Positions 1-47,438 of a stretch of DNA of 64,000 nucleotides are shown here, piece after piece. The stretch covers positions 3,224,001 through 3,288,000 of the forward strand of contig CM074703.1 of the NCBI GenBank assembly GCA_037367355.1, given 5' to 3'. The notes under the pieces are model-generated. The model saw only the letters and a program-made list of their open reading frames with translations, did no database searches and was not told the origin of the DNA. The stretch comes from Neoscytalidium dimidiatum (taxonomy: Eukaryota; Ascomycota; Dothideomycetes; Botryosphaeriales; Botryosphaeriaceae). Each line of letters opens with the position of its first letter. The stretch's first letter is position 1. Both the position numbers and the translations under genes were made by a program.

Positions 1-157
1 AAATGCTCTGCCGCGGCTCCTAGGAGCCCAGGACCATCCATCACCATGACTGATGGGCATGTTGTACCACTGAAAACTGAACCACGCGCAGATAATTCCC
101 ATGAACGAACCGAACATGATGTCGAACCCGTGGTGCCGGAAATCAGAGTAGCGAGTC
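1..157 (-). pseudogene. PAP2 lipid phosphatase, 3' part of exon 3 (disrupted gene, runs off left edge)
   Basis: Read on the minus strand, these bases encode RYSDFRHHGFD, the third PAP2-phosphatase motif (R-x5-H-x3-D). It is followed by a membrane segment and the WSWAPRSRGRAF tail typical of fungal lipid phosphate phosphatases of the DPP1/LPP type. The frame continues exactly from the fragment at 17943-18911: ...SGT ends at the GACTC duplication (minus strand) and RYSD resumes here. Removing 158-17942 plus one GAGTC copy restores the frame. The stop codon lies outside the window. No stop or frameshift is visible in this fragment, so decay since the insertion is slight. Confidence 0.88.
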
Positions 158-278
158 TGTTATGGCAGGTACGCTTAGCGCGGCGCTAGCGCCGCTGGGT
201 AGTTTAGCTCCTTCGCTCTCTTCTATACAACGAAGACCAGACAACGAATATAGATGCATACGAGTTTTTACTCTAATA
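158..278 (+). repeat. 5' LTR of outer element
   Basis: 121 bp. It pairs with 17822-17942. The outer end (TGTTATGGCAG) is unmutated, while the inner end reads ACTCTAATA where the other copy has GCTCCAACA; all three differences are RIP-type transitions. The core contains the GC-rich palindrome GCGGCGCTAGCGCCGC. Confidence 0.92.
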
Positions 279-296
279 ATTAGTAGCTGCGAACTT
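279..296 (+). other. Primer binding site of outer element (probable)
   Basis: Right after the 5' LTR comes TTAGTAGCTGCGAAC. Undoing one G-to-A change gives TGGTAGCTGC, complementary to a tRNA 3' end GCAGCUACCA, which I recall for filamentous-fungal initiator tRNA-Met. The location is seen in the sequence; the tRNA identity is from memory. Confidence 0.55.
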
Positions 297-377
297 TTTC
301 GACTATTATCCGCGCGCTACTCGCTTTAGGGTAGTACTATAGGGCACCTACGGGTAATATTAAAAGACTTTATACTA

Positions 378-522
378 CTATATAGCTATAGTAGTAATAG
401 CTAGAACGCCTATACCGCTATACTAATAGTTAGAACGTCTATATAGTTATAGTAATAATAGTTAGAACGCCTATATAGCTATAGTAGTAATAGTTATATA
501 GCTATACTAATAATTAGAACGT
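378..522 (+). repeat. Tandem repeat in leader of outer element
   Basis: About five imperfect copies of a roughly 30-bp unit built around CTATAGTAGTAATAG and TTAGAACGCCTATATAG lie just downstream of the 5' LTR, before gag. Copies differ mainly at transitions, as expected if RIP acted on an older tandem array. Confidence 0.65.
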
Positions 523-2039
523 TAGCGAGCTAGATAACATTATCGCGTATTATCTTAATAGGATTATTACCTTAATAGGACCGATTAACGCTAGCTACGG
601 TTAAATTAGTACGGGTTTCTATATCCCGCTACGTTAGTCGTAACGAGCTTCGGAACCTTAAGCTTTCTAATATTTAAGTAATAAATAGGCGAGGATAACG
701 ATATTTTCCTCCGTTCCTAGAACGCTTTTCTTCGTATTTACGGCTATTATTAGATATATTTCTAGGAGATTTACGGTCGGCTATTTACGAAGCGGCGAAT
801 ACTCTAGCCCGTTAATCGAGTAGTTCTAAGATACGGGTTAAACGAGTATAAAAATCGTCGTCGTCTAACGAGATCGAGCTTCGTTTCTAGCCTTAAACTC
901 CTATTAAGCTAGTATTTAATTACTACCTTACTCGCTCTTAACCCCCGCTACCGATACTAAAACCGAGGCGTATAGACGCCCCTCGATAAGAAACTCTAAT
1001 TATATTTAACGGAAGTATAGATACGAACCGACTATAATAGACGTAAGTTATATTACTAGAATCTATAGATAATACGCTATAAAGGATAATATTAGATAAG
1101 AGGGAAGAAGGTTTAATTATATCTTCTCGGAATAAGAGTAAGTAACGAGTGGAATTAAGACTATTATATAGCTACCCGTTCTAAGGCTATTCGAATAATA
1201 CTTACCGAAGAGACGTAATAGTAGTAAAGATTCTAGCTAAAGAGAAAGGTTTTCTCTAGCTAGCCTATCTTACTTTCCCGTAGGATATTCTATTACGGGC
1301 CGATACGGTATATAGTTTAACGCGCCTCTATATAGAATAGCTACGCCCTTAAGTAAAGGCGGTAATTTAAGAGTAGTTCTTAGTACTAGATTTTAACGAG
1401 GAGCGTTTTAATAGGTAGTATAAATAATTTCGAAAGGGTTTAACTACTAATAGCTAGGCTTTAGATAAAATAGTATCGATACCGCCCGAACGGTAGGTAA
1501 TATAATAATAGAAAGTAAGGCCTTAGCGATAGCTACGAGAGTCTTACCGTCCGCCAGAGGCATAGCCTTTTTACGAAGAGAAATAAAAGAGTAACCTACT
1601 AAGACGTCCTTAGAAATAACCTTATAACGTATTATAAGGCGCCGATTTATTACGACTACTAGAAGACCTAATAGTACGCTAGAGGCTAAATAAAATCTTA
1701 CGACTAGAGTTACTAAAACCGACTTAGTTATAACCGTATCGACTCTAGTCGGACTATTAGAAAATAGAAGAGATTAGTAGAACTTTCCCTCCCTCCGGAT
1801 AGTAAGTATTAGTTAAAGAGAACGTACGAGATACGATAAACCCTCTCGATAAGTCTTACTAGCGTCGTTATATACTACCCCCTAAGAAATATAGTATAGT
1901 ACCGTCTATAAGGTCTGTTTATACGATATAAATATAATATAGCCCCCCTCGAATACGCTACGCCTTCGAATATATTCCCTACTATAGTCCTCTACGTCGC
2001 TACGAAGTATATTCTTCGGTATATAGATATAGTAGAGGC

Positions 2040-2840
2040 CGCCTATAGCGCGAACGTAACCGTCGACTATAAGTAGAAGATATAAGTCTATATAAGGGCA
2101 CTACTAGTATATACGTATACGTTCGTCGAATTGTATAGCGAGTTAACGAATATAGGACCGCGCGTATATTAGAAGTATTACCGACGTATATAAGAGGTAA
2201 AGCTACGGACTAGTATAAGTCGTTGCCCGATACTATCTATAATAGAATAATAGAAAATATCGACGAATAATATATCTAATTACGATACCGTTTCGCGAAG
2301 AATCTATTAGAAGCGGAAGAAGAGGCTACGCTTTATAAGTACTCGTTTAAAAATAAATACCTTCTATCCTTACGAGAGTATATTACTAAGAAGTAAACCC
2401 TACTATATAAAGTAGATTACGAGAAAGAGAGCTCTCTTATTCGCCGTATTTAGCGAGATATAGATCTAATTATTATAACTGCTATAGTTATCTAGCCTAG
2501 TATAATAATAGAGTTATTTCTAGACGTAGTCTACGTATAGAAATACGTAGTAAGAACGTAGTACCTCCGTTATAATAGATACTAGGATTAGCGCCGTAAT
2601 TAGTACGGGTAGTTCTAGGCGGTATAAGGCCTCTTCTAGCTAATTACACTAATTATTTATCTACGTATAACCTAAGTATTGACCTCTACCCTAATAATAC
2701 TAGCTAATACTCTACGCCCGATTAGAGTACCTCGATAGACGACTACTAACTAAGAAACCGCCTAACGCTCGGTTCGTTATTTCTACGTATATTATAGTAG
2801 TATAAACTATATTAATCTTTAATATTCTAAGCGTCCTAAG
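2040..2840 (+). pseudogene. gag relic of outer element (capsid to zinc knuckle)
   Basis: Codons starting at positions divisible by three read coherently with scattered TAG/TAA codons. Around 2163-2260 the frame gives TYIRGKATD-stop-YKSLPD, matching the capsid signature in which a tryptophan follows the aspartate (TGG to TAG by RIP). At 2784-2825 the 14 codons YVYYSSINYINL-stop-Y fit a CX2CX4HX4C zinc knuckle if each Cys (TGC/TGT) became Tyr (TAC/TAT), His became Tyr and Gln became a stop. The N-terminal limit is unclear; gag probably starts nearer 900. The Gag frame differs from the pol frame, so a programmed frameshift or similar recoding was needed. Confidence 0.7.
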
Positions 2841-3149
2841 CTACTTACTACTACAGCTAATTACGCTAGTAAAAGCGAAGATAACGACTAAATAAATAAG
2901 GACGGTTAAGCGGACTATACGCTAACTAGACTAAATATAAGGGACTATTAGATCTACGCGGTTAGTAACGATTTATCCGAGTCGTCCGATACTTTAAACG
3001 ACTAGAGAAGCTATCTAAGAATAGAGATAACTCCTTAGTATAGAAACTACTAGGACTTATAAAGAAAGTTCCCCCTACTAAAATATCTAAGAAACCGAAA
3101 ATATATCTATAGACCTTATCTACCCTAGAATAATAATATACCTCTACTT

Positions 3150-6100
3150 AAGCGTATTATTTATCGGATAAGAACGAGCCTATCGAATTTTATTCTAATA
3201 TAGGTTCGGGCTCGTTACTAATCCGTAAATCTACTTTATAACGTTTTTTTCTAAAGTTAGTAACGTATAAGTTACCCGCGGACGGTAGAATAACGGTAAA
3301 CGGCGTCGGTAAGAATACTTCTACCTAAACCTAGTATTTTATAAATTTTATACTTCGAATACGCGCTACCGACGGCACGATCTATAAATAGGCCGACTAG
3401 GTATACGTACTTAAATACTTACTAGTTCTAATTTTAATCGGTAATAATTTTCTCGCTATATAAGGGATCGATATTTTATAGTTATCTCCGATAGGCGTAG
3501 TATTATATTATATAGGCTACTATTTTAAGATCTATACGACGTCCGTATCTTAGCGCCGATATACTATTTTACGCGCGGCTATCTCTACGATAGTACTATC
3601 TAGAATAGGAGTTAACCTTTAGATATAATATCGATCGGTTTCTACCTATCTAAAGAGATACTTAGTAGAATTCTAGACTCTAGGCGATTTAGCTATAGGA
3701 ACTTTTAGACGCGTTATAAGCGTAATTATTAAGAAAGACGAACGATAGATTTCTTTTACGAACCTAGGCTAGTCGGACGTACGCGTCTTAAAAGATTAGA
3801 TAATAGACTTCTTAGAATAAGCTTCTATCTCTATCTATCGTAAGATATTAGCCTTTCTATCCCTTAAGAAAATTTTCGAAGAAAAGCTACTAGAGTCGAA
3901 AATAGAAGATAATAACTCTTCGGTAGGTATCCCTTATACGATAGAGCCTATAAAGGAGGCTATCCCGATTAATTAGGCCTACGTCTTAGACTATTAGGGA
4001 CTAGAGTATCGTTAGTAGATACTATAGCTACTAAGGACTTACTCTATACTATTTCGTCTTAAACCGAAAAAGTTTAATAACGGAGTAACTATATTAGTAC
4101 TATTTAAAGATAACGTTAATTTATCCTAACTTAAATAGGCGCCGTATAGCTTATCTAAAAGAGATAAGAAAGTAGTAAACGAGGTACTTAACCCGTTAGT
4201 AGAATAGAAAAAGATAATTAAAGTACCGTTAGATAAGCCTAGTATAGTCGCTTCTCTAGTATTTATAGTATAGAAGAATAATAAGCTACGAGTAGTCGTT
4301 AATATAAGATACGTTAACTAGGCTTTATACTCTAACGCCTATCTACTACTAAAGTAAAATACGATCTTATTCGCGATAAGAAGAGCTACTATTTTCTCGT
4401 CGATCGATTTTACTAAGGGATTCTTCTAATAAGAAATCGACGAGAAGAATCGCTAGAAAACAGCCTTCGTTACCCCCTACCGAGGATAGAAGATATTTAC
4501 CGTATTAACGATAGGTCTAGCTAACTCTCTAAAGTTCTTCTAATACCGAATAGAGGAGTTATTTACTAACTACCTCTAGCTCTTTATACTAGTATACGTA
4601 GATAACGTTATTATTTTTAGCCGTAATAAGGAAGAACACCTATAGTATTTATTTCGGATACTTTAGTTACTAGAGTTATCCGGCGTTATAATTTCCCTAT
4701 CTAAGTATTATTTTAGATATCCTTCGATTTAGGCTTTAGACTACTACGTATCCTAACTAGGTCTTAGTACTCTAGAAGCGAAGATAGAGGCTATTAAAGC
4801 TATAAAGTTCCTAAATAACCTAGCCTAACTTAAATACGTAATTAGATTTCTAGGATACTACCGGAAATTTATAGAGTATTTTACGTATAAGGCGGAGCTA
4901 ATAATACGGGTAAAGACTAAAGGCTTTAAAGGTATACTTAGTAGGAGATACGAGCGTCTTAAGTATATTAAGTCTACGATACTAAAGAATTTACTAACCG
5001 AGAAAGAACTATTCTAATATTAGTAGTCTTTTAATTACGTACGTAAATTAGTTTATAATACGCTAGTTTTAATATTCCTAGATTTTAATCGGGGTTTTAT
5101 CTTATATATAGATAGGAGCTAAGAGAGAGAATTTAACTATATAGTATATTAGTTAGACCTTACGGGTCTAAATATACCTAAGGAGCGTCCGGTATTATTT
5201 CTATCTAAAAGCCTAACGCTAGCGGAATATAGATATTAGCTAATAGAACTCGAGACTACTACTCTAGTATAGGCTTTATAAAAGTTACCTTAATATACGG
5301 ACTAGAACTAGATTATAGTTTTTACGGATTATTAAGTACTTTAGAATACTTTTAAGAATAAGAGTCTAGCTAAAGGTAAGCGGTCTAAACGTTTAACTAA
5401 CTAGAGACTATTTCTATTTAAATATAAAGACCGTATAGAGGTTAAATATATCGCTAGAAAGGAGTATCGTAATACCGACGGTTTATTCTAAATATAGACT
5501 ATATACTACGCGATCTTACTCTAACTAACTACGTTATCTAGATATTAAGCCGTACGTATTCTTTATACTTCGCTATCTACGACGGGAGAAATATAGCGAT
5601 AAGACCTACTAAATATTAGTCTAGAGTTAAAAGAACGAATTATTAGAAACCTTCTAGCGGATCTAAAGCTTAGAATAATATACTAGGCTATTCGAGAGTA
5701 AATTAATAAGAATTCTAACGAGCCTTAGACGACTATATAATTCTTTCGACTAAGTTAGAACTCTAGATTACTCTTTTAAATAGCTTCGAATAGCTATAAC
5801 CGGTTATATATACTATAGAAGATATACGTAAGTATATTCCGCGTTATATATAATAAGTACGCATATACGGGTATTTACTAGACTTATATACGGATTCGGA
5901 CGAATTTCTATCTACTAGGACTTTATAAATTAGCTTACTAGTATATTACTACTTATCCTACTTATTAAACTATAAAGGCCAACCGCTAGTTATCGTTAGA
6001 AGAGCTATAGCCTATTAATAGCCCTACTATTCCGTTTTATACTATTACTATAGATTTTATTATAGGATTACCGCTATCTTACGCTAAGTTTAATATACTA

Positions 6101-7155
6101 TTAATAGTAACGGATAAGTTTATAAAGGCTATTAAGCTAGTACTAGAAATTAAAACTTAGAATATATATCGTTAGATAGTAGCGGTCTATAATTACGTTT
6201 TCTTATAATAGGAACTACTATAAAAGATAATTAGTAATTAAGACCCTCGTTTCCTATTAGTATTCTAGACGGCCCTTTTTTACCGAATAGAAACCTAGCT
6301 AGCGTTTACGTTAGTATACTACCCCTAGGCGAATAGATAGAGTAAAAGAACTAACTAGACCGTAGAAACTACGTTACGAATATTTATTACCGCGGAATAA
6401 AAAGCCTAGTCTAAATAGAACGAGTTATTACCCGATACTAAGTTTATTCTTAATACTTTATCTAACGCGTCTATTAGTAAAACTCCGTTTAAGCTTATAT
6501 ACGGTATTAACCCTCGTAATAATACGGCTTTAATTAAAACTATACGATATAAACTAGCGGAGTACTTTTAGGGAGAACGAGAATAGATTTAAAAAGACGC
6601 TTCTAATATACTCTAGCTAGCGTAAGTAAAAATAGCTATAGAGTATAACTCGCGCTATCGACCGCTCTAATATATAGATAAGATCTTCCTTAAGATCGTT
6701 CGTAGAATTAAGTATAGTTATCGATTATCGTACTTAATAGTATTAGATATTATTAAGATTAGACTATTCCCCGTACTTAAAAAAGTCGGAAAGAATATAT
6801 ACTAGCTAGAGCTACCCGAGTATATTAAGATCTACTCGGTAGTTTCGATTATATATTTAGAACTAGTAGTTAATAATCCTTACTATCGTAAGTAGGCCCT
6901 AGTACCTCTAGTAGAGAGTACTATAGACGTAAAACCGATTAAGTACGACGTCGATCGTATTATTTATAAAGAGTAGCGACGATAGCCGGGCGATAAGAAA
7001 AGACGATAGTATTACCGCGTTCAATAGAAAGAATACGAAGTAAAAGACGATACGTAGATTCCCGAGGAGTAGCTTAAGAAAGACGTACCTAAAATCGTAG
7101 ACTAATTCGAGGAAAATCTTTCTCGACGCCTACGATATTTAACGCGTCGTTAAAA
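3150..7155 (+). pseudogene. pol relic of outer element (PR-RT-RH-IN-chromodomain)
   Basis: Protease, RT, integrase and chromodomain motifs all fall in one frame. The protease active site near 3194 reads NIGSGS where D-T/S-G is expected. RT begins near 4255 with LVFIV-stop-KNNKLRVVVN, then SSIDFTKGFF near 4394, and the catalytic YVDD box near 4590 reads YVDN, a G-to-A change at the second Asp. RNase H follows around 5050-5450. The integrase core has TIDFIIGLP near 6047 and an HPQ-like stretch near 6320. A chromodomain begins near 6941 (KYDVDRIIYKE) and ends near 7155. Frequent stops at CAA/CAG/TGG-type positions but no frameshift where I read it indicate an intact polyprotein before RIP. It cannot be functional now. 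Confidence 0.85.
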
Positions 7156-10100
7156 TAGCTAGTAAATTTCGAGCGTTTAAATATTTTTATTACCTCTTAC
7201 TTTTTCGTTTTCTACTTTCCTCTTATTTAACTATATTATCTTTATTAGCGTTTTTATTAGCGTTGTTTAGATATTTATTCTACGAGGATTCTAAGATAGT
7301 TTTAGACGATATATATTACGACAGTACGCTATATACGTAGACTAGTAGACTATTCTTTAGACCGTTAGTATTTTCTCTTTAATAATACGAACCTCCGTAC
7401 CGACCTACTATTATTAGCCGGTAATATTTTCCTTAATACTATAAGCGACGCTATAGTAAGCGTAACTAAGATATATACTTTAGAACGATCTACTAGGTAG
7501 CTATTTCCCCTTTAGTATCTTTTTCTTTATCTATTTTCGGCTCGCCTTAGAATCGTCTATAGAGCGTCTAGGGGTAAGAGATTACTATTACTATTAAAAA
7601 TATCTTATATAGCTAAGGCCGTTCTTTTATATATAGATCGACGCCTATTATTAGTTCGCTTAATAAGTAGATAAAAATTTTTTTACTTTCTAAAGAATTA
7701 CCGATAAGCGAGGATATCTAATCTAAAATCGCAACCGGGTTAGCTCTACTAATATAATATCTATATCTCTAAATATTCGTACTACTCTTATACTTATATT
7801 ATCGATTCGATATATCCCTACTAATTAGTACGCGTTCCGCTATAGCGTCGGCTTATTAGATCCTATTAGATATAAAGACCGACCCGTTCTTAGCTTCTAA
7901 AGACGAGATATATACCTATATTCTTAGCTTTTAGGCTTATACCGGCGAGTACGCGTATATAAGAGAATTAACTATTAACCTCGCCTTCGAGTTTAGCGAA
8001 GTAGGCCCGAAGCGTAACGCTAAGTAAGCTAAGCTTAATAATTATTAAAATCTTAATAACGAGCTAAAAGTTCTAGAGTCGGTCCGCCCTCTAAACGGCT
8101 TTTATATCTTAGTTACTTTCTTATTATTTAAGGAATATAACTCTACTATCGAGCTTCGAATTATATAATACTAGCCTTACCTAACTAAGCCTAACCGATA
8201 AAAGTTACGCGTTATATTAATTATAGGTAACTATAATAGTATTAACCTAGAAATTCGTTTTAGCGGTTTCCGTAATAAGGCGAGTAAATAGGCTACCCAG
8301 TATAAAATAACGCGTAACTAGATCTTCTAACTATATAAGGCCGCCGGTTTATATAATAACCGGCTTTAGGAAATCGAGATCCCTTTCTACGAGGACTTAC
8401 TCTACTTCTAGAGACTATTTTCTACGAATAAAGAGTACGAAGATCTTTTCTAAGAATAACTACGCGAATATATATACGGCTCTAGAGTATTTTATATACT
8501 AATTTAAAGCTCTAGTATCGAAAAGACGGTTAATCGAATAAACGATAAAATAGCTAAGCTTCGAGAAAATAATCTACTTAACGCCTAGTTTCCTACGTCT
8601 AAGAATAAGAAGTTTATTTAGAAAGGTATAATTAAAAGTAAGAAGAACCGCCCTAAGATTAAGCTAGAAATATCTAATATCTTTTTAACGTTTAACTACT
8701 ATCTAACTACGGTTGGTTTTATAACGGTTTAAAAGTAAGAATATAGCGACGAGAATAGCTAGCCTTTCCTTACTAATATTCGTTTTCTAGAGATACCCAG
8801 TAGCTATAGTAACGCTTTTTTCGGTTTTCTATCCGGCTTCCCTAACGGAATTTATTTAAACGCGAGAGATAGCCTTAAGATCTACCCTACGAATACGAGC
8901 GAAGAGATCGATAATAAAGCTTAGAATAGATTTATCCTTAATTCTTTACTATTTATAAGGTTAAGCGATATCTCCGCTATTCTCTATCGCTACTAGTATA
9001 AAGGCGTATAGGATTAAGTTAACGTAGGTAACCTAGCTAGAATCTAGGATCTTAATACTTTCGATAAAGCTCGTAAAGCTATTATATAAGCCCCGGCCTT
9101 ACGATCTATCCTTAAGATCTATAACTCGTCTAAGTTCTTTAAACTATAGGTAAACTCCTTACGATAAATTATAGATAACTAAAAGGAAGCTTTTAAGCTT
9201 AAGCGCGAAATCTTACTAGGTAACTATCCGTTACGTCTATCTTACGTAAACCTATACGCTTAGATCGTTACTAAACCCCGCCTATATAAAATAGAAAAGC
9301 GTATTTACGATAAGTTTAATAAGAGCTAAAGAGCTATAGCGAATACTTATTAAAGCCTACTCGGCGGTATTAATATTATTAAAGGTCCCCCCGGCACTAG
9401 AAAAACGTTTATAGGAAATTAGATTATTTAACCTCTACTCTATTTAGATAAGAGCCTAGAGCGTTAACCCGTTCTATTAATCTTAGCCTCTAATAAGTCT
9501 ACTAATATACTTATAGAACGCCTAAACTAACTTACGGTCTAAACCTTTAGAGAGATAGGCCCTTAGACTCCGCCGATAATTATTCGTATATTTCTAACGT
9601 AGGTAGAAGACTAAATCGTAAAACGGAAGGTAGAAGCGGTACGACCTAATAAGAGGCTTACTCGTTTTAATAATACGCTTCTAAATCTTAGTTAAATATT
9701 AGCCGCCTAGATCTTTATAGAGCGATATAATAAAGCTACGTACCGTCCTATTACCGGAGTTAATAACTAGCAAGTTAAGGAGATTAGTCTTACTCTCGGT
9801 TTCCGTATACTATAGATAAGCGGTTTCTCGGATATACTCTTTACTACTAAGGATAACGAATAGTACTAAGAGTTTTAAAGAATATTCGTAGAGTATAAGA
9901 GTAGTAAAGTCTTTATAGAAAAGAAAAAAGAGTAGTTTACCCTAGCTATTAGCGAACTCCGCGTCGTAATACTTTAACGCGCGGAAGCTATCGTTATAAC
10001 TCCCGCTATCGTCGGCCTTTTTAAGTTTCGCGATGTAGTATAGCCGAGAGTTATCCTAGTAGACGAAGCCGCCTATATTAATAAGGCTAACCTATAGTAT

Positions 10101-10253
10101 TATTTTAACTAGTTTCTAGAAGTAATTCGTATCCTCTTAAGCGATACTCGGTAACTACACCTATTTATATATCCGTAAAATAATCTATACGCTTAGGCTA
10201 GCGTTTTACTTATACGTCGCCTAGTACGTATAGGCTTTCGCACTATCTAGCTT

Positions 10254-10638
10254 TGTTACGCCGGGACTCTTTCTGGGGGAGTCGAGGCGCGTCGTCAGGC
10301 AGCTTGGGCTTTCTAGGGGCCAATACAGTGGTAGGCAGGGGAGGTTCGTACAATAGTAGGGTAGGAATCAATTGACAAGTTGACCACGAGGGTCCTAACT
10401 ACGATAAATGAGTGTGGTCTATATACATGGAGTGATCGGTACGATCAGTAGTGATCTGTAATGTTAACCCACTGATCAGTACTGATCGGTGGTCCGAGCT
10501 TTGCTGAGCGAGTGTGCGGTGGTCTGGTGCATCAGTGTCGGTAGGTATTCTGCCGAGTTAGGCCCCGAGTTGGTCACGTGGGCGGTGAGTAGTCGTAGGG
10601 TTTCGTTATCCGCCTTTCTGGGCGACTGTGCCGTAACA
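10254..10638 (-). repeat. 3' LTR of inner element
   Basis: 385 bp. I compared it base by base with 16391-16775 and saw no difference. It contains a TATA-like TATATA on the minus strand and a cluster of GATC-containing inverted repeats (around 10430-10485). Confidence 0.95.
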
Positions 10639-10650
10639 CTATCCCCCCTC
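10639..10650 (-). other. Polypurine tract of inner element
   Basis: Minus strand GAGGGGGGATAG abuts the left LTR, marking it as the 3' LTR. Confidence 0.8.
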
Positions 10651-10918
10651 TAGGCAACCTTCGGCCCGAAGGTCGAGTATAAAGGTAGTTGAGCTCCCTC
10701 CTTAGTTCCCTTGAGATTATTTCTCTGCCGTCATGTCCAGTTCCGCTCGTCGACGCGCGCTTCTCGCCCGTATCCTTCGTAACGGTACTGACGCTCCCAG
10801 ACGTTGTTCCTTTGTGTGGAGAGACCTCGTCTTCGTTGTCTTGTGTCGCCGGATTCCAAGAGGTGTTACGAGTGCCAAGCGAGGCCACCTTTGTTCCTTT
10901 CCTTCTGACATGGCTTCC

Positions 10919-13900
10919 CTATTGAGTTTCGTCGTGTGGATCAACAACGGGACCGGGTGGCTCAGATTGAGCAGACCCAGCGCGAGATCGAAAGGGATGA
11001 GGCCGAGATTCAGCGGTTGCAAGAGGAGGCTCAACGTTTGGTTCGTCGTACCGCCACTTCTCGGTCCAAGGTGATCCGCCTGTTGCGGACACTTTCCTTC
11101 CTGGATTCCCGGAGTCAGGAGTTGTTTGAGCGGGAGTTGGCGGCCATTGAGGCTGAGGAGGCGCAGGAGGCGCGGGCGGCTCAGGGGTCCTTGTTATCTG
11201 GTTCAGGCGGTGGTGACGTGGCGGGTTCCGACGGGCTGGTTCCTCGAGAGGCACCGGTGGACCAGTTTCAGGTGTCCTTGACGCCTCCTCCGGGGTTTGC
11301 GTCGTGGGAGGATGCTCTGGGTTTGGGCGGTCAGGGTTTCGTCGGTGGTATTCATGGATGAGTTCCTCGCAGTTAAGGTAAGAGATTGGTTCCCATGAGG
11401 GTTCCCACGGGTTCCCGGCGGAATCCGCTCCTTCCCATTTGATGAGGTACTTAAATTGACCGTCGATCCAGTCTCCATCCAAGATTTTCTCTACGTCCCA
11501 TTCTTTGTCGGCGTCATCGGGGTGTATTTCAAGTTCTGGGTCAGGTTCGGCGTTGCTGTGTGCGGGTTCAAGTAAAGAGATGTGGAAAACTGGGTGTATA
11601 CCCACTTGTTCTGGCAATCTGAGTTTAAAGGAAACAGGTGAAAGTTTTTTCTCAATTTGGTAGGGTCCGATTTTCTGGTCCAATTTGTCGTTCGATCGTG
11701 TTGTTTTGATGTTTTTCTGAGGAGCCAGACTTTATCCCCTCCTTCAGGGGCGGCGACGCCTGGCGCCGTCTGTCATGGTACATGGCCATTCGGTATGCGG
11801 TGAATTTGATGTCTCGGGCCAGTTCCTGGTGTAGTTCACGTAGCTGGTCTGCTCTGAGCATAGCTTTTGGGCGAGTACTTCGCAGATCTGGGGTTCTCCG
11901 AAGGCAGTAGGGTCGAATCCGTAGTTGGCGTAGAAGGGCGTGGTTTGTGTGGCTTCCGTTGATGTGCTGTTGTACGCGTATTGGGCTAATGGTAGGAGTT
12001 CGACCCAGTTGTTTTGCCTGTAATTCAGGTAGAATCTTAGGTACTGTTCTAGCGTTTGGTTGGTTCGTTCCGTTTGTCCATCGGTTTGCGGGTGTGCCGT
12101 TGTTGACATCTTGTGTTTAGTTCCTAACTTGTGGACCAAGGTTTGCCAGAACTTAGCTCTGAATCGTGGGTCTCGGTCCGTGATTAGTTCCTTGGGCATC
12201 CCGTGGTGGGCGAAGACATATCTGAGGAAGAGGTAGGCGCAGCCTTCTGCTCCGATTTTTTTGTTGCAAGGGATGAAGTTTGCCCATTTTGTCAAACGGT
12301 CGACAATGACCAGGATGGCGTTGTGTCGCGCTTTAGTCACAGGGTCTACTGAATTTGGCAGGTCGGTGATAAAATCCATTGTGACCGATTCCCAGGGTTT
12401 GGTTGGTGTTGTGATGAGCTGTAGTTGTCCGTATGGTGCATGTCGTGCCACCTTGTTTTTTGCGCATTCGTCACATTCCTGGATGACTTTCTCTACTACT
12501 TTCCTCATTCGGGGAAAGTAGAAGTGTCTTGCAAGCCGTTCCAAGGTTCTTGTCATTCCTGGGTGTCCGTGAACTGCGGACTCGTGGTATTCCTTTGTCA
12601 GCCGTTTGCGCAGAGGTGTGGGTACGTAGATTTTTCCGCGGAATAGTATGTTGCCTCTATGGTCTTGGACTAGGTCGGGGTCGTCATGTTCGGGGTGCCT
12701 ATTCGTTGAAGCAGTTCTTGGATAGCGGATCATTGTTATATTTTCCTTGGATGATTTGTTCCCAAGTGGCGGTGTCATCTTCTTCCTCGTTTACTGCCTC
12801 TTCCGTGGTTTCTTCAAGTGTTGGTATGGGTTCCTCGTCCTGCGGTTCCTCTTCGTCCTCCGGCTCCTGCTCTGGTGTTGGGTTTCGTGGAGGTTCGTCG
12901 TCGTCGATGGGGCTCCCAGCCTTATGATGGGTGCCAGTATTCGTTCTTCCCAGGGTGCGTCGGATTCTTCAATGATTCGGGGCGGTTGGGCCTAACGTGC
13001 CGTCGTCATTTTGTCGTAGTACTGCTGGTGATAGTTCTGGCTTTCCTTCCACGTGGTCGGCTCTGCGGCTAAGTGCGTCGGCCTTGCCGTTTTCACCCTT
13101 GCGGTAGTGGATCTTGAAGTAGAAGGGGGCGAGTTGTTCTGCCCATCGTACTTGTCTTCTGTTTAACACCTTGGTGGTTGTGAAGTATCCCAGGTTCTTG
13201 TGATCCGAGTATACCGTGATTTCGTAGTTAGCTCCCTCAAGGTAGTGTCGCCATTCCTTGAACGCTGTGACGATCGCAAGCAGTTCTTTGTCGTGTATCT
13301 CGTAATTGAGCTCGGCGGGTGACATTTTGCGAGAGTAATACGCGATAGGGTGTAATCTTCCTCGTCGTCTGGCTGGCTGAGGGTAGCGCCAATGGCATAG
13401 TCGGATGCGTCAGTTTCGAGGTAGAGTGGCTTGTCAGGATCGAACATGAGGAGTACCGGCGCTTCTACGAAGGCCCTTTTGGAGTTGATCAAACGCCTCT
13501 TGTTGGGGTGCTTCCCAGGTGAAAGGGGTATTTTTCGGGTGAGTCGGATTAGGGTTCGGCTACATGCGAGTATCGTTTGATGAATCGTCGGTAGAAGTTG
13601 GCAAACCCTAAAAGGCTTGTACTTCTTTGACGTTCCTTGGTTCTGGCCACTTCAGGATGTCTTCCACCTTTTTTGGGTCCATGACTATTTTTCCTGGTTC
13701 GATGATAAAGCCTAGGAATTCTACCCTTTGGGCATGGAAGGTACATTTTTCTGGTTTGACGGAGAGGTTGTATTCGAGTAGTTTCTGGAGGACTTTGGAT
13801 ACATGTTCCTTGTGTTCTTCAAGGGTTTCTGAGTAGATCAGGATGTCGTCGAGGTAGGCTGTGCAGAATCGGTCCAGATATTCTCGTAGGACGTGGTTGA

Positions 13901-15150
13901 CAAGGGCTTGGAATGTGGCAGGGGCGTTGGTAAGTCCGAAAGGCATTACAAGTACTCGTACAAACCGTATCGAGTTCTGAATGCGGTTTTCCATTCATGT
14001 CCTTCCTTGATTCGGATAAGGTGGTACCCATCCCGCAGGTCTAACTTGGTGAAGAATCGTGCCCCGGAGAGGCGATCCCTTAGTTCATCGATGCGGGGTA
14101 GAGGGTAGCGGTCTTTGATGGTAATGTCGTTCAGGGATCGGTAATCCACACAGAGGCGTAACTTGCCTCCGGGCTTTGGTACGAAGAGGACGGGGAATCC
14201 TGCTGAGGATTGAGAGGGTCGGATGTATCCCTTCTTCAGTAGTAAGTCCAAGTGTTCCTCATTGCTTGTAACTCCTTTTCCGACATTGGATATAGGGGTC
14301 CAAATCGGGGTTCAGTGCCTGGTTTCAAGTTGATCTCGTGGTCCCATGGTCTGTGTTCCGGTAGTGCGTCTTCGATCTTTTCTCTGAAAATTTCCTTGAA
14401 CCGGTGGTATTCCTTAGGAACGCCATCAAGGTACTGTTCGTGTATCCTGGTGGGGTCATCTCCCACGGGTGTCGGGTAGTCTGGTTTTTCTCGTCTGGTG
14501 GCACTAATCTGTCGGGTTCTTTCTTTGTTTGTAGTGGTGGGGCGATACCACATCATTCCAATTGCTTGCCCCTTCTTTCGGGTCCTTTCCAGCGCAGCTT
14601 TCGAAATTAGGCTTACGTGGGTAATCGGTTCGGCTATGGTGCGTGGTTTCCATTCTGGTTCTTGGTTTCGTTCTCTGGACTTGAGGGTAATTCCTCCATT
14701 GTCCCAATCGTATTGTATTTTCCATTTCTTCTGCCAAGGGATGCCGAGAATGACATCATACTTGGGGATCTTGGTAACGTCTAGACAGATACGTTCCCTG
14801 TGGTTTTTGTATTCGAGGGTCAGTTTCGGGGTTTCGATGATTACCTTTCCATCTCCAAAGGAGCTGGGGGATCCATCAACAGTTCTCAGCTGATATGGTT
14901 GGTCCTTTCTCTGGGTTTTAGGTTGGCTTTTTCTGCAAATCGGTTTGAGACGTAGTTCCCTTGTGATGCGGAGTCGATGAGGGTGAGCGCTCGGCGTCCA
15001 TTGATTTTTGTCACGACAACCCAGTGGTTCCCGTATTCTGCGGAGTCTCCTTTGCTTTCTGGTGGGTGTCCTGTGGTTTTTCCGGTCGATGCTGCTATGG
15101 TCCTGTGGGGCAGGGGCCTCGCCTGCTGTAGCCCCAGTTCAGTAGGCGTT
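10919..15150 (-). pseudogene. pol of inner element (frameshifted as given)
   Basis: Successive domains on the minus strand are RT ([14 protein letters not shown] near 14150, [12 protein letters not shown] near 13930, YLDD near 13850), RNase H ([15 protein letters not shown] near 13420, [12 protein letters not shown] near 13290), integrase zinc finger (HxxxxH...CxxC, 12500-12600) and core (MDFITDLP near 12370, TDRDPRF near 12170, QTDGQTERTNQ near 12070), then a chromodomain (EWDVEKILDG near 11500) and a proline-rich tail ending at 10919. All catalytic residues I can see are intact. About nine frame changes separate the pieces. Nearly all can be explained by one missing base in a short homopolymer, so this may be an intact gene with sequencing errors. 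If real, the copy is non-autonomous. Confidence 0.85.
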
Positions 15151-15199
15151 TCTAGTTTTTTGGGTGGTACCCGCTGATGTTCTTAGCTTCCTGGTGAAT

Positions 15200-16335
15200 G
15201 GGGCAGGCTTCGATGCTAAGTGGACCAGTGGATGGTGTCATGGTTGGGGTCTCCGGTCGTCCTTCAGTAGCCGAGGTGGTTTTCTTGTCGTTGGTTCGCT
15301 GGTTGCTGGTTCGTTTGTCTGGGCAGTTTCTGCTGATATGTCCGTGCTTTCCACAGTGGAAGCAAAGACCTTTTCACGCCGTCGCTGTTCTTCCCCGGCG
15401 CCAGCCGAGGGTTTCGTCGTTGGTTGGCATCTAAGTCCATGGGGTCCCCCGGGGGTAGGTTGTTTCGAGGTTGCGCGGTGTTGGCCGAGTATCGGGTTTG
15501 GCCTGTCTCTTGTCTGAAATTGAACAGTTGTTGGTCGACTCGGATGGCCGTGTCGATGGTCTCGCTAAGGTCCTTGGGTAATCCGGTGCGGGCGAATTCG
15601 GCCTTCACATTGTGCTTTAGGCCCTTGTAGAAGATGTATTTGAGGGATTGGTCGTTCCAATTGAGGTAGGAGGCGAGCATGCGGAATTCCGTGACATATT
15701 CCGAGACTGATCGGGTTTGTCGGAGGTCCTGAATTCGAAGGGCGGCCTCCTGCTCCTCGTTCTTGCTACCAAAGGCTTGTCTGATTGCGTCGGCGAAGCG
15801 ATTGTAGTTGGCGAACAGGCTACTGGTTTCCGTACGTGGGATGGCCGAGCGGAAATCCTTTCGATAGGTACCGTGCTGCGTTACCTCGGAGGTAGGTTCC
15901 TGCAAAGCGGACCCTTTCCTCATCGTCCTTGAATGATGCTTTGTAGAATTCGAAGTAATTTCTAGTTGGGCCAGGAAGTCGTTGAGCTTACGCCGATCCC
16001 CATCGTAGGTGTCGGGGTCTTGATCTTTAGTTTGGTGTTGTGGGGTCGATTCTGATGTCGCGGGGTGGCTGGTGGAGGGCCGCATAGTACGGTTGACAGT
16101 AAAGGCTTGTCCTCGAATGAAGTACTCCAGAAGGACTTGGCCGCAGTCCTCACTGGCGTTCTCTGGTACTCTGGGTCCGTTGATTGCTCGACTCAAGGAG
16201 GCTATGCCCGAGGAATATGCCCGAAATGAGCAGCCTCATGTTAAGAGCTGGGTTTCCAGGGATCAAGGGACGGATTGACTGAAGCTGTTCCTCCTCCGTC
16301 GGAAGGTTGTTCCTGATTTCGGTCCAGGATGTCAT
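15200..16335 (-). pseudogene. gag of inner element (frameshifted as given)
   Basis: It starts MTSWTEIRNNLP at 16335, just inside the 5' LTR. The capsid region includes YFEFYKASFKDDEERV and RGNAAR, then LFANYNRFADAIRQAF and YVTEFRMLASYLNW, as in Retrotrans_gag domains. A CX2CX4HX4C zinc knuckle (CFHCGKHGHISRNC) is encoded around 15325-15367. These pieces lie in different frames, so the sequence as given has at least three or four one-base frame changes. One is explained by loss of a T in a T run (LEI-YFEFY junction). The product would be the particle-forming Gag protein. Confidence 0.8.
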
Positions 16336-16390
16336 GGTTAGTAGTTTTCAGGGTGGGGTTACCTCCGGTGCCTAAGAAAGGTGGTCAAAG

Positions 16391-16775
16391 TGTTACGCCG
16401 GGACTCTTTCTGGGGGAGTCGAGGCGCGTCGTCAGGCAGCTTGGGCTTTCTAGGGGCCAATACAGTGGTAGGCAGGGGAGGTTCGTACAATAGTAGGGTA
16501 GGAATCAATTGACAAGTTGACCACGAGGGTCCTAACTACGATAAATGAGTGTGGTCTATATACATGGAGTGATCGGTACGATCAGTAGTGATCTGTAATG
16601 TTAACCCACTGATCAGTACTGATCGGTGGTCCGAGCTTTGCTGAGCGAGTGTGCGGTGGTCTGGTGCATCAGTGTCGGTAGGTATTCTGCCGAGTTAGGC
16701 CCCGAGTTGGTCACGTGGGCGGTGAGTAGTCGTAGGGTTTCGTTATCCGCCTTTCTGGGCGACTGTGCCGTAACA
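16391..16775 (-). repeat. 5' LTR of inner element
   Basis: 385 bp, apparently identical to 10254-10638. As the upstream LTR in the minus orientation it should carry the promoter: a TATATA box lies near 16556, and transcription would run leftward into gag at 16335. Confidence 0.95.
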
Positions 16776-17498
16776 AGCTTACTAAATAATAGCGCTACGG
16801 CTAGAAAATCTATAAAATTATTTTAGAAGTCTAGTACGAGAGTCTTCTTACTACTACGTAGTATCTCGTTAATAAGCCTTATAAGGAAGATTAATAATTT
16901 CGGTTATAGTCTAAGAAGTTCTATAGTATAAAGACTTAAATTCTCTACGTTAATATTAAGAATAGTATTACCATTAGAGATTCTTTTAAATCCTTCTTTA
17001 ACCTTTAGTATACTTACTTAGGTAGAGGAATTATTTGTAGCCTACTCGATAAGGGTTTCTAGCTAAAGTAAATTAGTATTCTCTATACGTACTAGGCCTA
17101 ATTTAATTTATACGACTGGGTTATTACGTAGATTTAGTATAAAAGACCTAACTAAGATCTTCGTATAATTCGTAATAAAAAGATCGACGGATTCTAAAGC
17201 GATAAGATTCTAGTTATAATTATTAACCTATCTACGATCTAGACCCTAGATTTTCTAAGAGATAGCTATCGTATTAATACTACTTTATCTCGTAGACGTT
17301 CGGGTATTATTTTAATCTATAATTACCGCGGCCTATCGTTAGATCGGAAGTACTAACGCTCTAATCTCTAGTCGGTTTTCGGGATTATACGCTAGAAAAG
17401 AAGGTTTACTACGATAAGTAAGAAGACTATCTAGAGTCGTTTTCCTAAGCTCTAAAAGAACCTAACGAGCGCTACTAGTTTTAAAATAGAGGAGGACT

Positions 17499-17585
17499 CT
17501 CCTATAGCGGATATTCCTTAGGATAATAGTAGTAATTAGAAAGCTCCTATAGCGGATACTTCTTAGGATAGTAGTAACTAGGAAG
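17499..17585 (+). repeat. In-frame tandem duplication in helicase C-terminus
   Basis: Two copies (45 bp at 17499-17543 and 42 bp at 17544-17585) begin CTCCTATAGCGGAT. They encode PIAD-(I/T)-(P/S) followed by an acidic, Ser/Asn-rich stretch. The 3-bp length difference keeps the frame, as expected for coding sequence before RIP. Confidence 0.65.
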
Positions 17586-17807
17586 CTTCTAGAAACTAGA
17601 ACGGCTAAGATACTAATACTACTAGCCTAGATCTTAATATTAAGGAAGAGGCTACCTAGCTTTCGAGGGAACGTAATAGTAGTTACTAATAAGAGGGCGA
17701 GGCTTTCTTTCTTTTTCTTTTCTTACTTTTTAAGTTAATAATAGGAGGACGAGGTTTTCTTTTTCTTTTTCTTCTACTCTCTATAGTTACTAAGAATAGT
17801 AATAACT

Positions 17808-17821
17808 AGGGGAGGGGCAGA
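17808..17821 (+). other. Polypurine tract of outer element
   Basis: AGGGGAGGGGCAGA lies directly against the 3' LTR, the usual site of plus-strand priming, and fixes the orientation of the element. It survived RIP almost unchanged. Confidence 0.75.
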
Positions 17822-17942
17822 TATTATAGTAGGTACGCTTAGCGCGGCGCTAGCGCCGCTAGGTAGTTTAGCTCCTTCGCTCTCTTCCATACAACGAAGA
17901 CCAGATAACGAATACAGATGCATACGAGTTTTTGCTCCAACA
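17822..17942 (+). repeat. 3' LTR of outer element
   Basis: 121 bp. Its inner end reads TATTATAGTAG where the left copy has TGTTATGGCAG (two G-to-A and one C-to-T change), while its outer end GCTCCAACA is unmutated. Together with the left copy this defines the full LTR. The GAGTC target duplication follows immediately at 17943-17947. Confidence 0.92.
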
Positions 17943-18911
17943 GAGTCCCAGACACGTAGACTGCCGCGGCCACTGGAATGGCGGCGATAAACCACAAATA
18001 TATCGGTGGCGCAGCGGCTTTATGACGAACGCTTCTGATGTTCAATTCGGACGAGGAGCCTGTGAACTGCCTGCCTAGAGACAAGCCACCGCTGACAACT
18101 GATTGCTGTCGTTCATCTTGTAAAGTGCGAGGAGAGCGTTTGTCGTAGGGTTGCAGGGGAAACATAGGTAACGCGATACGGAGTTTCGCACAGATGAAGA
18201 GCGTCAGGTAACCAAGACCTGCGAACGAGACTTTGTGGCGTCAATAAGTCGATGGTACGTGAGTGAGTCTTGGGGCGTGGCTTACACGACGAGTGGCCGC
18301 TTGGAAAGCTACTGAAGCCATCCTTGAGCAAATCCTTTCTCTGACAAATACCTGAAGACACGAGATTCGTTCCCTCAGGAAACGAGTCGCCCACGCCGCC
18401 GACCACGAACTTCGACAGCTGGCTTATGTCAGGGGAGCACCGACTGATGAGGTCCGGCCGAGGCTTGCCGAAAACACTCTTCATCCCCATAGTGAAGACG
18501 AATGCAGTCGCCAGGGACAGAGCAAGACCAAGCCATCCAACATGCCATTCCCAGAGCTTTGTTCGCAGCTTCGAAGAGGAGGGCTGAGTGCTGACAGCGG
18601 CATCCGGCACGCGAACAAGACAGATGATGGGAATGATGACTGCCGGGACTAGCAATGCTATTGCAGCAAGAAGCGTGAGCGGTATCGTCTCATGCTCCAC
18701 ATATGGATAGGATATATCGGTGTTGATGAGAGAGAATGGCCGTTCGTTCGGAGTTATCGCTGAGAACGCGGCGCCGACTCCTAATGCGACTCTAGTGAAC
18801 GGTCAGTGACGGGTTTTGTGGGTCGCAGGCGAGAACCCACATGATCACTATCCAGTCGAGTATGTACGATGCGACGAGCAACTTCGAGAAAGAGCCGCCC
18901 CAAGAAGGCAT
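17943..18911 (-). pseudogene. PAP2 lipid phosphatase, 5' part (exons 1, 2 and start of 3), truncated by transposon
   Basis: An integral membrane phosphatase of the PAP2 superfamily; relatives dephosphorylate phosphatidate and diacylglycerol pyrophosphate. My exon model on the minus strand is 18911-18841, 18791-18286 and 18230 onward, with introns of 49 bp (18792-18840) and 55 bp (18231-18285). It starts MPSWGGSFSKLL, followed by a membrane segment with DWIVI. Motif 1 is KSVFGKPRP (K-x6-RP) and motif 2 is FPSGHSS, cut one codon later by intron 2. Exon 3 continues through HKAAAPPIYLW to YVSGT and then stops at the inserted element. Motif 3 lies 17.8 kb away at 1-157. As it stands, translation would run into LTR sequence and lose the catalytic His, so the gene should be null unless the allele without the insertion survives elsewhere in the population. 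Confidence 0.88.
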
Positions 18912-46000: not shown

Positions 46001-47438
46001 TTTTTTTTTTTCCTGCGCGGTGGATCTGCCCATGATGCTGGTGGAGATTGGCGGAGCTGATTGAAATTGGCGATTGCATTTCTGGGTGAAAATCTCCAGT
46101 AAATCAAAGTCGACACTGCAATCTTCGTTGAAGCAAGGAGGGTTCTTCGAAAGTCCCTGGGAGACTGCTCAATGTAGGAATCGAGGGAGATGAAAGCTAC
46201 GTGGATAGGCGCTATTTGCTCTGCCATTTAGTGCTTGTTCTGAAACTAGCCTTTTCAGGTGACTTTCCATAGTTAGTCTCAAATCATCCAACCGTGATGT
46301 TGTTAGAGCGTTATGCAATGGAAAGCAACGCCGTCTTACGGCCAGCTCCGGCCGAGCTTGTTTAGAATACTTACTGTGGCTGCATTCGGACTGTTTGCAC
46401 ACTCTCCTACCTACAAGAGACAGCTGATATCTTGTTTCGTAGTTTGGGTACGGATTTCTGTGAGATTTTCGATACCAAACCCCGACGGACTCCATCCAAA
46501 TAATATAAAAAAAGAAAACTGCGGTGGTGAGATCTAGACAATATGCACACTATCCTTTCTTCGAGAGGGATGCGGCTGTATGCAGGTCGATGTTGCGTGT
46601 GGAAGTGATATGGAGGGCAATACTTCTTTCAACAATCCTGGTTTATACAATGTGGGCGGGTTCAATGAAGTGTAAGGAGAGCTAACAGCCCAGTTTCTCA
46701 GGTTAACAGACGGCCGAACAACGTGAAAAGGTGCGGGAGAAGGAACACAGCGTAGAGCGACAATCGAAAGAAGAGAAAGAGAGAGGGAGATAAAATGTTT
46801 TGGAATGAAGATTTAATTGATGACTGAGACGATACCGTTCTTGGTCCTCCGTACCCAAGGTATATAGCTCAGACTAATAGATGCAGTGTAGAAACCATAC
46901 CTGAGTCGTTTGCCCACATACTGGCACTCGCGGTCTATTGAGATGAATTCTGTAGTGTATGCTGCATGTGCAACATTGATTGGGAGTAGAAAGGCTTGAA
47001 AGATAATGATTGATTGTATAAGAAGTCAATTCAATTACTCCAGCGATAAGTCTGGAGAAGTGTTGTGCGGGGCAGCCTTGGCTCTCGCACAGCATTCACC
47101 CGAGATGCAGGATGCCAGCCCACCGGAGAAGCTGCTGCACAACACCGCCAAACCCCACGCCACGTAGCGCGGTGGGATGACTTGGCCGCGGGGTATGCAT
47201 TACAGACAGACGTGGATGTACCACTGCCTTCCTGCCTTGAAAGTCGCACTTTGAGAAGAGCGGCCTCTTGAGCGAGCGCTATCCATTGTCTTGTAGAGTA
47301 TGGCTTGAGCATTCTGAATCCCACATTGCCCATTTAGTCCCCCAATTTCCTTTTAGGGTAAGCTGCACTCAGTACTACCAAATTTCACCGAACCACATCA
47401 TAACAACCCAACAATACAAGACTCTCCTCCCTACAAAA
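43067..47438. other. Intergenic, microsatellite-rich, no gene recognised
   Basis: 4.4 kb, the longest gap. It holds many T runs (for example 44600-44611, 45068-45082, 45631-45642, 45999-46010), a CAC array (about 45275-45295) and an AAG array (45562-45594). Short frames on both strands are explained by these runs. Confidence 0.6.
45562..45594 (+). repeat. (AAG)n microsatellite
   Basis: Eleven AAG/GAA units without interruption. Confidence 0.9.

What the first reader, a model, noticed from the sequence alone, without database searches (positions are those of the whole stretch)
7620..17691. A gypsy retrotransposon that carries its own UPF1/NAM7-like helicase frame
Between the chromodomain (ending about 7155) and the polypurine tract/3' LTR, the outer element holds a roughly 1,180-codon frame with SF1 helicase motifs Q, I, Ia, II, III, V and VI in order. 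It is in the same orientation as pol, equally RIPed, and free of frameshifts where read, so it was intact when RIP began. Standard Ty3/gypsy elements stop after integrase/chromodomain (family knowledge). I know of no described chromovirus with this gene. It could be a captured host gene or a functional component, for example for RNA handling or evasion of RNA decay.
Basis: partly seen in the sequence, partly recalled or inferred. Interest (0 to 1): 0.88.

Follow-up and report, generated by a model that had tools for sequence, protein, structure and literature searches.

The report
Fungal retrotransposon carrying a helicase gene
A dead family of jumping genes in a fungus carried, besides its usual genes, a full gene for an RNA-helicase-like enzyme; each of the three complete copies found in this genome has it, which suggests the helicase was a working part of the element.

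Summary
The outer element (LTRs 158-278 and 17822-17942, target duplication GAGTC) is a heavily RIP-mutated Ty3/gypsy element with a weakly matched chromodomain. After pol and a ~500-bp spacer it has a sense frame of about 1,160 codons, split by a younger nested element (10254-16775). The frame encodes an SF1B UPF1-superfamily helicase: Pfam AAA_11 in the first part and AAA_12 in the second, slightly below cut-off in the window, AAA_12 above it in copy 2. With a three-copy profile all 14 PDB matches at E<=1 are UPF1-superfamily helicases, ZNFX1 best (3.4e-11). All three pol-bearing copies that DNA searches found in this genome carry it in the same order, each with its own 5-bp target duplication. 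Frame-breaking indels are rare in the helicase frame (1 in about 7,850 aligned bases; 3 with a doubtful homopolymer) but not in non-coding stretches (8 in 1,536), so the frame was constrained until RIP. It is no recent copy of the host helicases compared (best about 19 bits). I found no relative in the protein database and no fungal equivalent in the papers listed. Best reading: an accessory ORF3 acting on the element's RNA, probably against silencing or decay; that function is inference (about 0.4).

The parts
153..157 (.). 5' target-site duplication GAGTC
   Evidence: read from sequence, matches 17943-17947
158..278 (+). 5' LTR, 121 bp
   Evidence: 93% to the 3' LTR over 117 bases; 10 differences in 121, all transitions
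279..294 (+). primer binding site region; the un-RIPed form next to the C11 LTR reads attggtagctgcgaac
   Evidence: that it pairs with initiator tRNA-Met is recalled, not tested
3881..7153 (+). pol frame: RT (about 4355-4720), RNase H (about 5081-5425), Tf2-1-like SH3 (about 6755-6850), chromodomain (about 6944-7114)
   Evidence: Pfam RVT_1 51.2 and RT_RNaseH 43 bits, over cut-off; SH3_Tf2-1 19.1 and Chromo 16.7 bits, below cut-off
7154..7680 (+). spacer between pol and helicase frame, apparently untranslated
   Evidence: four indels of 1-2 bp against copy 3, none against copy 2
7680..10253 (+). helicase ORF, first part (phase 0): N-terminal region of no known domain, then motifs I, Ia, II, III; AAA_11 match about 9327-10076
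10254..16775 (-). nested younger chromodomain retrotransposon, not part of the outer element; two identical 385-bp LTRs, target duplication AGCTT (10249-10253 / 16776-16780)
16781..17680 (+). helicase ORF, second part (phase 2): motifs V and VI, AAA_12 match about 16802-17320, C-terminal repeat of about 14 codons near 17490-17600
   Evidence: repeat read, 42-bp indel
17808..17821 (+). polypurine tract AGGGGAGGGGCAGA
   Evidence: read from sequence
17822..17942 (+). 3' LTR, 121 bp
17943..17947 (.). 3' target-site duplication GAGTC

Best explanation
The outer element is a Ty3/gypsy family, most likely chromoviral (about 11.26 kb without the nested insertion), whose genome is LTR, leader/gag region, pol with a chromodomain-like end, a ~500-bp spacer, an ORF3 for an SF1B UPF1-superfamily (ZNFX1-like) helicase, polypurine tract, LTR. 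Shown: the order, the helicase class, its presence in all three pol-bearing copies found, at separate target sites and with both LTR subtypes, and frame constraint before RIP. Inferred: ORF3 was translated from its own (spliced or internally started) message, and its product acted on the element's RNA, most likely unwinding or remodelling it so that it escaped silencing or surveillance (about 0.4), with help to reverse transcription or RNA export as the main alternative (about 0.3). RIP then shut the full copies down; many insertions survive as solo LTRs.
For: Copies at C9:943.8-961.9 kb and C3:3391.3-3420.4 kb, besides the window, hold pol then helicase in the same order. Target duplications GAGTC, TTCGT, TCTAC. 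Three-copy profile: all 14 PDB sequences at E<=1 are UPF1-superfamily helicases (superfamily membership recalled), ZNFX1 3.4e-11, a 'pre-mRNA-splicing factor' that I take for the Aquarius type 2.6e-7, UPF1 1.5e-4. Non-triplet indels: 1 in about 7,850 aligned helicase bases against 8 in 1,536 leader, spacer and 3' non-coding bases (Fisher p 4e-6; with the indels at 7677/7678 counted as coding 3 against 8, p 5e-5); helicase indels of 3 and 42 bp keep phase. Distinct transversion sites, which RIP does not make: pol 9 of 10 at codon position 3 (p 4e-4), helicase 7 of 12 (p 0.07) or 6 of 11 without the one next to the 7678 indel (p 0.12). Both LTR subtypes have helicase-bearing copies. LTR pair of the window without transversions. 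ORF3s of LTR elements are said to be expressed typically from spliced messages (PMC5408684, passage).
Against: The three full copies are RIPed, so activity, expression and start codon cannot be read. The helicase transversion bias alone is not significant. Three copies in one genome; no relative in other species was found. gag and the integrase core were not matched by Pfam and the chromodomain only weakly. The genome-wide AAA_11 search listed none of the copies and the AAA_12 search only copy 2. Copy 3 has a 1-bp frameshift in the ORF. The spacer indels all come from copy 3; copy 2 has none there. One of the 8 non-coding indels (65 bp in the leader) lies in repetitive sequence. The affinity to ZNFX1 is not supported by the tree (branch of 4.8, unplaced). 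For insect retrotransposon helicases PMC6338049 (passage) sees no essential role in retrotransposition.
Confidence: 0.72

Rival explanations
1. Passenger capture: the helicase gene was transduced once and spread passively with the element, without a role in its life cycle.
For: Only three full copies, a shallow family (few transversions between copies), no known need of such elements for a helicase; the helicase transversion bias is not significant on its own.
Against: Present in all three pol-bearing copies found and with both LTR subtypes; almost no non-triplet indels while the non-coding stretches have several; about 3.5 kb that deletion should remove if useless (inference); no recent parent among the host helicases compared (best about 19 bits).
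Confidence: 0.2
2. Nested independent element: a separate helicase-bearing transposon inserted into one ancestral gypsy copy, and the composite then spread.
For: Helicase-bearing transposons such as Helitrons are reported from fungi (PMC4522978 and PMC10799480, passages).
Against: No direct or inverted repeats of 60 bases or more besides the two LTR pairs (shorter termini would be missed); Pfam finds AAA_11/AAA_12, not Pif1 or Rep; the other matches of the whole-genome AAA_11/AAA_12 searches mostly lie in long open frames, as host genes do (not each examined).
Confidence: 0.04
3. Same architecture, other function: the helicase serves reverse transcription, strand displacement or nuclear export of the genomic RNA rather than evasion of defence. 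This overlaps with the best explanation and differs only in the function.
For: An extra protein of an LTR element can handle genomic RNA: CERV of the C. elegans element Cer1 is required for its export (PMC10309623, title and start of abstract in the listing). Direct help to cDNA synthesis was proposed for insect retrotransposon helicases (PMC6338049, passage).
Against: Most chromoviruses do without one (recalled); the nearest relatives, ZNFX1 and UPF1, are RNA-surveillance or silencing helicases (recalled).
Confidence: 0.3

Closest known systems
Fungal chromoviruses (Ty3/gypsy with integrase chromodomain; Tcn1-like named in the listing, others recalled)
   Same: LTRs, PBS, RT-RNase H, chromodomain-like end, PPT, 5-bp target duplication
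   Different: a separate ~3.5-kb helicase ORF between chromodomain and 3' LTR
Insect LINEs (TRAS/R1, Jockey) and insect LTR retrotransposons with SF1 helicase domains of RNA-virus origin (PMC4686597 listing; PMC5563155 and PMC6338049 passages)
   Same: retrotransposon that acquired an SF1 helicase; weak silencing suppression reported there
   Different: there a viral helicase domain fused to element proteins in insects; here a separate ORF of UPF1/ZNFX1 type in a fungal element, with no match to the viral helicase model PF01443
Bdelloid rotifer LTR retrotransposons with enzymatic ORF3 (DEDDy exonuclease, GDSL esterase; PMC5408684 abstract and passages)
   Same: enzymatic accessory ORF in the env position
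   Different: a different enzyme, a different host kingdom
Phalaenopsis orchid Gypsy elements with an AlkB-type m6A RNA demethylase ORF (PMC9289625 abstract and passages)
   Same: gypsy element with an extra ORF for an RNA-acting enzyme
   Different: demethylase, not helicase; there shown active in vitro
ZNFX1 / UPF1 / Aquarius cellular helicases
   Same: AAA_11 + AAA_12 core; ZNFX1 is the best solved-structure match
   Different: no UPF1 zinc or Aquarius N-terminal domains matched; N-terminal ~500 residues match nothing; encoded in a retrotransposon

Membership tests
Ty3/gypsy LTR retrotransposon | paired LTRs, short target duplication, PBS, PPT | tested here: met
   5-bp duplications in all three full copies found; tRNA match of the PBS not tested
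Ty3/gypsy LTR retrotransposon | reverse transcriptase and RNase H in pol | tested here: met
   RVT_1 1.7e-13 and RT_RNaseH 5.4e-11, both over cut-off
Ty3/gypsy LTR retrotransposon | integrase core downstream of RNase H | tested here: inconclusive
   rve not matched at E<=0.1 in the RIPed frame; SH3_Tf2-1 matches weakly
Ty3/gypsy LTR retrotransposon | gag | tested here: inconclusive
   no Pfam match in the three forward frames of 279-3880
Chromovirus | chromodomain at the integrase C-terminus | tested here: inconclusive
   Chromo E 0.0073, 16.7 bits, below cut-off 25.1, in the expected place
UPF1 superfamily (SF1B) helicase | AAA_11 and AAA_12 domains with motifs I, II, V, VI in order | tested here: met
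   AAA_12 over cut-off in copy 2, AAA_11 below cut-off in the window copy and copy 2; genome-wide AAA_11 search missed all copies
UPF1/NAM7 proper | N-terminal zinc domain (PF09416) and 1B domain (PF18141) | tested here: not met
   not matched in the ORF although a host UPF1 shows both; RIP changes Cys codons, so absence is not certain
ZNFX1-like family | phylogenetic placement with ZNFX1-like helicases | tested here: inconclusive
   best profile match and nearest host rows by path, but the tree leaves it unplaced on a branch of 4.8
Insect-type retrotransposon viral SF1 helicase | match to Viral_helicase1 (PF01443) | tested here: not met
   not among the matches at E<=1 or E<=0.01
Helitron | Pif1/Rep helicase | tested here: not met
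   Pfam finds only AAA_11/AAA_12; the element has LTRs and pol. Helitron termini were not sought

The most novel reading that the evidence does not exclude
A lineage of fungal chromoviruses took up a ZNFX1/Hrr1/SAD-3-type RNA-silencing helicase long ago and kept it as ORF3 to divert or block the host's small-RNA and RNA-surveillance defence, an arms-race gene resembling a host silencing factor, until RIP destroyed the family.
Probability: 0.22. Interest if true: 0.87.

Novelty: new variant of a known kind. Interest (0 to 1): 0.68.

Why it matters
Extra enzymes in LTR retrotransposons are reported as rare, and the known cases (AlkB in orchids, exonuclease in rotifers, viral helicases in insects) each point to a pressure on retroelement RNA. 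A cellular-type RNA helicase in a fungal gypsy element would make 'what limits a retrotransposon's RNA in fungi' testable, in a genome where this family was RIPed while a younger chromodomain family beside it is un-RIPed. Automated repeat libraries might mask such genes or annotate them as host genes (inference).

Tried and rejected
Protein-database searches with the X-masked window helicase and the three-copy profile gave no match at E<=0.01. A control with a host protein shows that fungi are in that database, but only the 7,999 and 7,996 candidates sharing most words were scored, and RIPed words are poor seeds. Recent capture of a host gene: among host helicases found by the AAA_11/AAA_12 searches the best score is about 19 bits. 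A tree did not place the element's helicase (one starred branch of nine; no AU test run). The N-terminal ~500 residues match nothing in PDB (E<=10); Pfam gives one chance-level line in one of three rows (E 0.17). NCBIfam gives IGHMBP2-family similarity at 37.9 bits, cut-off 348.9. Structure prediction was not run: no deep alignment was available. Literature: ten searches showed no fungal gypsy element with a UPF1-type helicase in what was listed; three listings were partial (12 of 642, 12 of 19, 12 of 85 papers). I saw titles and abstract starts, and passages of six papers (PMC4522978, PMC10799480, PMC6338049, PMC5563155, PMC5408684, PMC9289625). Repbase and most subscription journals are not covered. 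An N-terminal alignment in the wrong phase for copy 3 was discarded and redone.
Full report
Setting. The window is C9:3224001-3288000 of a 43.76-Mb, 40-contig genome.

The outer element. LTRs of 121 bp lie at 158-278 and 17822-17942, flanked by GAGTC. They differ at 10 of 121 sites, all transitions. pol (3881-7153) gives RVT_1 and RT_RNaseH over their cut-offs, and SH3_Tf2-1 and Chromo below theirs but in the expected place. gag and the integrase core were not matched in the RIPed frames. A polypurine tract abuts the 3' LTR. A 6,522-bp element on the minus strand, with gag, integrase and chromodomain matches, two identical 385-bp LTRs and target duplication AGCTT, sits inside the helicase ORF. 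It is not RIPed and belongs to a numerous family: 40 exact full-length LTR matches among the 40 candidates scored of 216.

The helicase. Phase 0 from about 7680 to 10253 and phase 2 from 16781 to about 17680 form one frame by position arithmetic. Its 90 stops are TAA or TAG, none TGA, as expected where RIP has removed nearly all CpA/TpG. Pfam finds AAA_11 in the first part and AAA_12 in the second, both just below cut-off. In copy 2 AAA_12 is over the cut-off and AAA_11 below it. Genome-wide, the AAA_12 search lists copy 2 but not the other two copies, and the AAA_11 search lists none of the three. With a three-copy profile, all 14 PDB sequences at E<=1 are UPF1-superfamily helicases: ZNFX1 3.4e-11, a pre-mRNA-splicing factor (taken for the Aquarius type), UPF1, Aquarius, NAM7 and SEN1. 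UPF1's own zinc domain is not matched. The N-terminal ~500 residues match nothing.

Copies. pol matches occur at three places (the C3 copy in two pieces around an insertion) and first-part helicase matches at the same three (the C9:950-kb copy in two pieces), in the order pol-helicase-3' LTR. Target duplications are GAGTC (window), TTCGT (C9:943.8-961.9 kb) and TCTAC (C3:3391.3-3420.4 kb). A fourth place, C2:317384-318424, holds the 3' part of the helicase from about window 10204 on, next to an LTR, preceded by other, seemingly RIPed, sequence. C8:2175.4-2175.8 kb is a fragment with about 150 bp of leader and about 110 bp of the 3' end between LTR stubs, without pol or the helicase core; C11:1438.4 kb is an un-RIPed LTR plus about 160 bp of leader. 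These are DNA searches; strongly diverged copies may be missed. Of 41 LTR matches listed (40 of 142 candidates scored), 30 were fetched: 4 belong to full copies and 26 are solo LTRs without internal sequence. A script recognised both ends in 24 of the 26, of which 19 have exact 5-bp duplications; L008 and L029 also do, read by eye, so 21 of 26. Eleven listed matches were not given loci (two of these belong to copy 2 and the C2 fragment, seen; one lies in L022). The other 8, and 102 unscored candidates, were not examined. The LTRs fall into two subtypes, with and without a 10-bp duplication. The window copy and the C2 fragment are of one subtype, copies 2 and 3 of the other.

Was it a gene in use? 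RIP makes only transitions, so transversions and indels are informative. In pol, 9 of 10 distinct transversion sites are at codon position 3 (p 4e-4). In the helicase it is 7 of 12 (p 0.07), or 6 of 11 (p 0.12) without the site next to the 7678 indel: the right direction but not significant. Indels are clearer. The aligned helicase frame (7,878 bases over copies 2 and 3 and the C2 fragment; 7,850 entered in the test) has, beyond the indels at 7677/7678, indels of 3, 42 and one of 1 bp (copy 3). Leader, spacer and 3' non-coding stretches (1,536 bases) have ten, eight of them not multiples of three. Fisher p is 4e-6, or 5e-5 if the two indels at 7677/7678 are counted as coding. Against: the spacer indels are all from copy 3 (copy 2 has none in 499 bases), and one leader indel of 65 bp lies in repetitive sequence. 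Six of the seven copy-3 spacer transversions are clustered at 7206-7225, so I do not use them as a rate. The spacer's frame-breaking indels suggest that the helicase is a separate ORF and not a read-through extension of pol.

Origin. The genome holds helicases that I label UPF1, SEN1, Aquarius and DNA2-like by their Pfam domains, and four ZNFX1-like ones by best solved match. The element's helicase is far from all: best about 19 bits, to ZNFX1-like proteins. A tree could not place it. So this is not a recent copy of any of these genes. The ZNFX1 affinity is the best current guess, and RIP distorts it.

How it might work. Shown: architecture, helicase class, co-mobilisation, constraint. Inferred: expression from its own message, and action on the element's RNA. 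I favour protection from silencing or surveillance (0.4) because the nearest cellular relatives work in those pathways (recalled) and weak silencing suppression was reported for insect retrotransposon helicases (PMC6338049, passage). Support of reverse transcription or RNA export is next (0.3; precedent CERV of Cer1, PMC10309623, seen in the listing). A passenger is less likely (0.2).

Known or new. Accessory ORFs in LTR elements are a known kind (PMC5408684 and PMC9289625, abstract and passages), and SF1 helicases of viral origin are known in insect retrotransposons (PMC5563155 and PMC6338049, passages). A separate UPF1-superfamily helicase ORF in a fungal gypsy element was not seen in the ten literature searches made, which cover open-licence PMC papers only and were partly listed. 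I file it as a new variant of a known kind.

Noticed in passing
window 10254-16775: Un-RIPed young chromodomain retrotransposon nested in the helicase ORF, LTRs 100% identical; 40 exact full-length LTR matches among the 40 of 216 candidates scored, so this family spread after or despite RIP.
   Followed up: partly
L077 (C8:2175150-2176000): Short, mostly un-RIPed fragment keeping about 150 bp of leader and about 110 bp of the 3' end of the helicase-bearing family between LTR stubs: an internal-deletion, possibly TRIM-like, derivative.
   Followed up: partly
L034 3566-9709 (copy 2, C9:952.6-958.7 kb): A ~6.1-kb insertion inside the helicase N-terminal region of copy 2 with a 13-bp overlap at its ends; no match to the window's nested element.
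   Followed up: no
L022 (C12, around 806146-806252): Cluster of an intact solo LTR, an inverted partial LTR and a second diverged LTR within about 1 kb.
   Followed up: no
L078 (C11:1438250-1439100): Un-RIPed LTR plus about 160 bp of leader, joined to other sequence.
   Followed up: partly
L076 (C3:3397600-3398300): A 99% match to the window's nested element lies inside copy 3 near its 5' end, so the young family inserted into two copies of the helicase-bearing family.
   Followed up: no
window 32099-37760 and 47268-49628: Host genes: two frames of a Cch1-type calcium channel and a glycoside hydrolase family 31 gene; ordinary.
   Followed up: no
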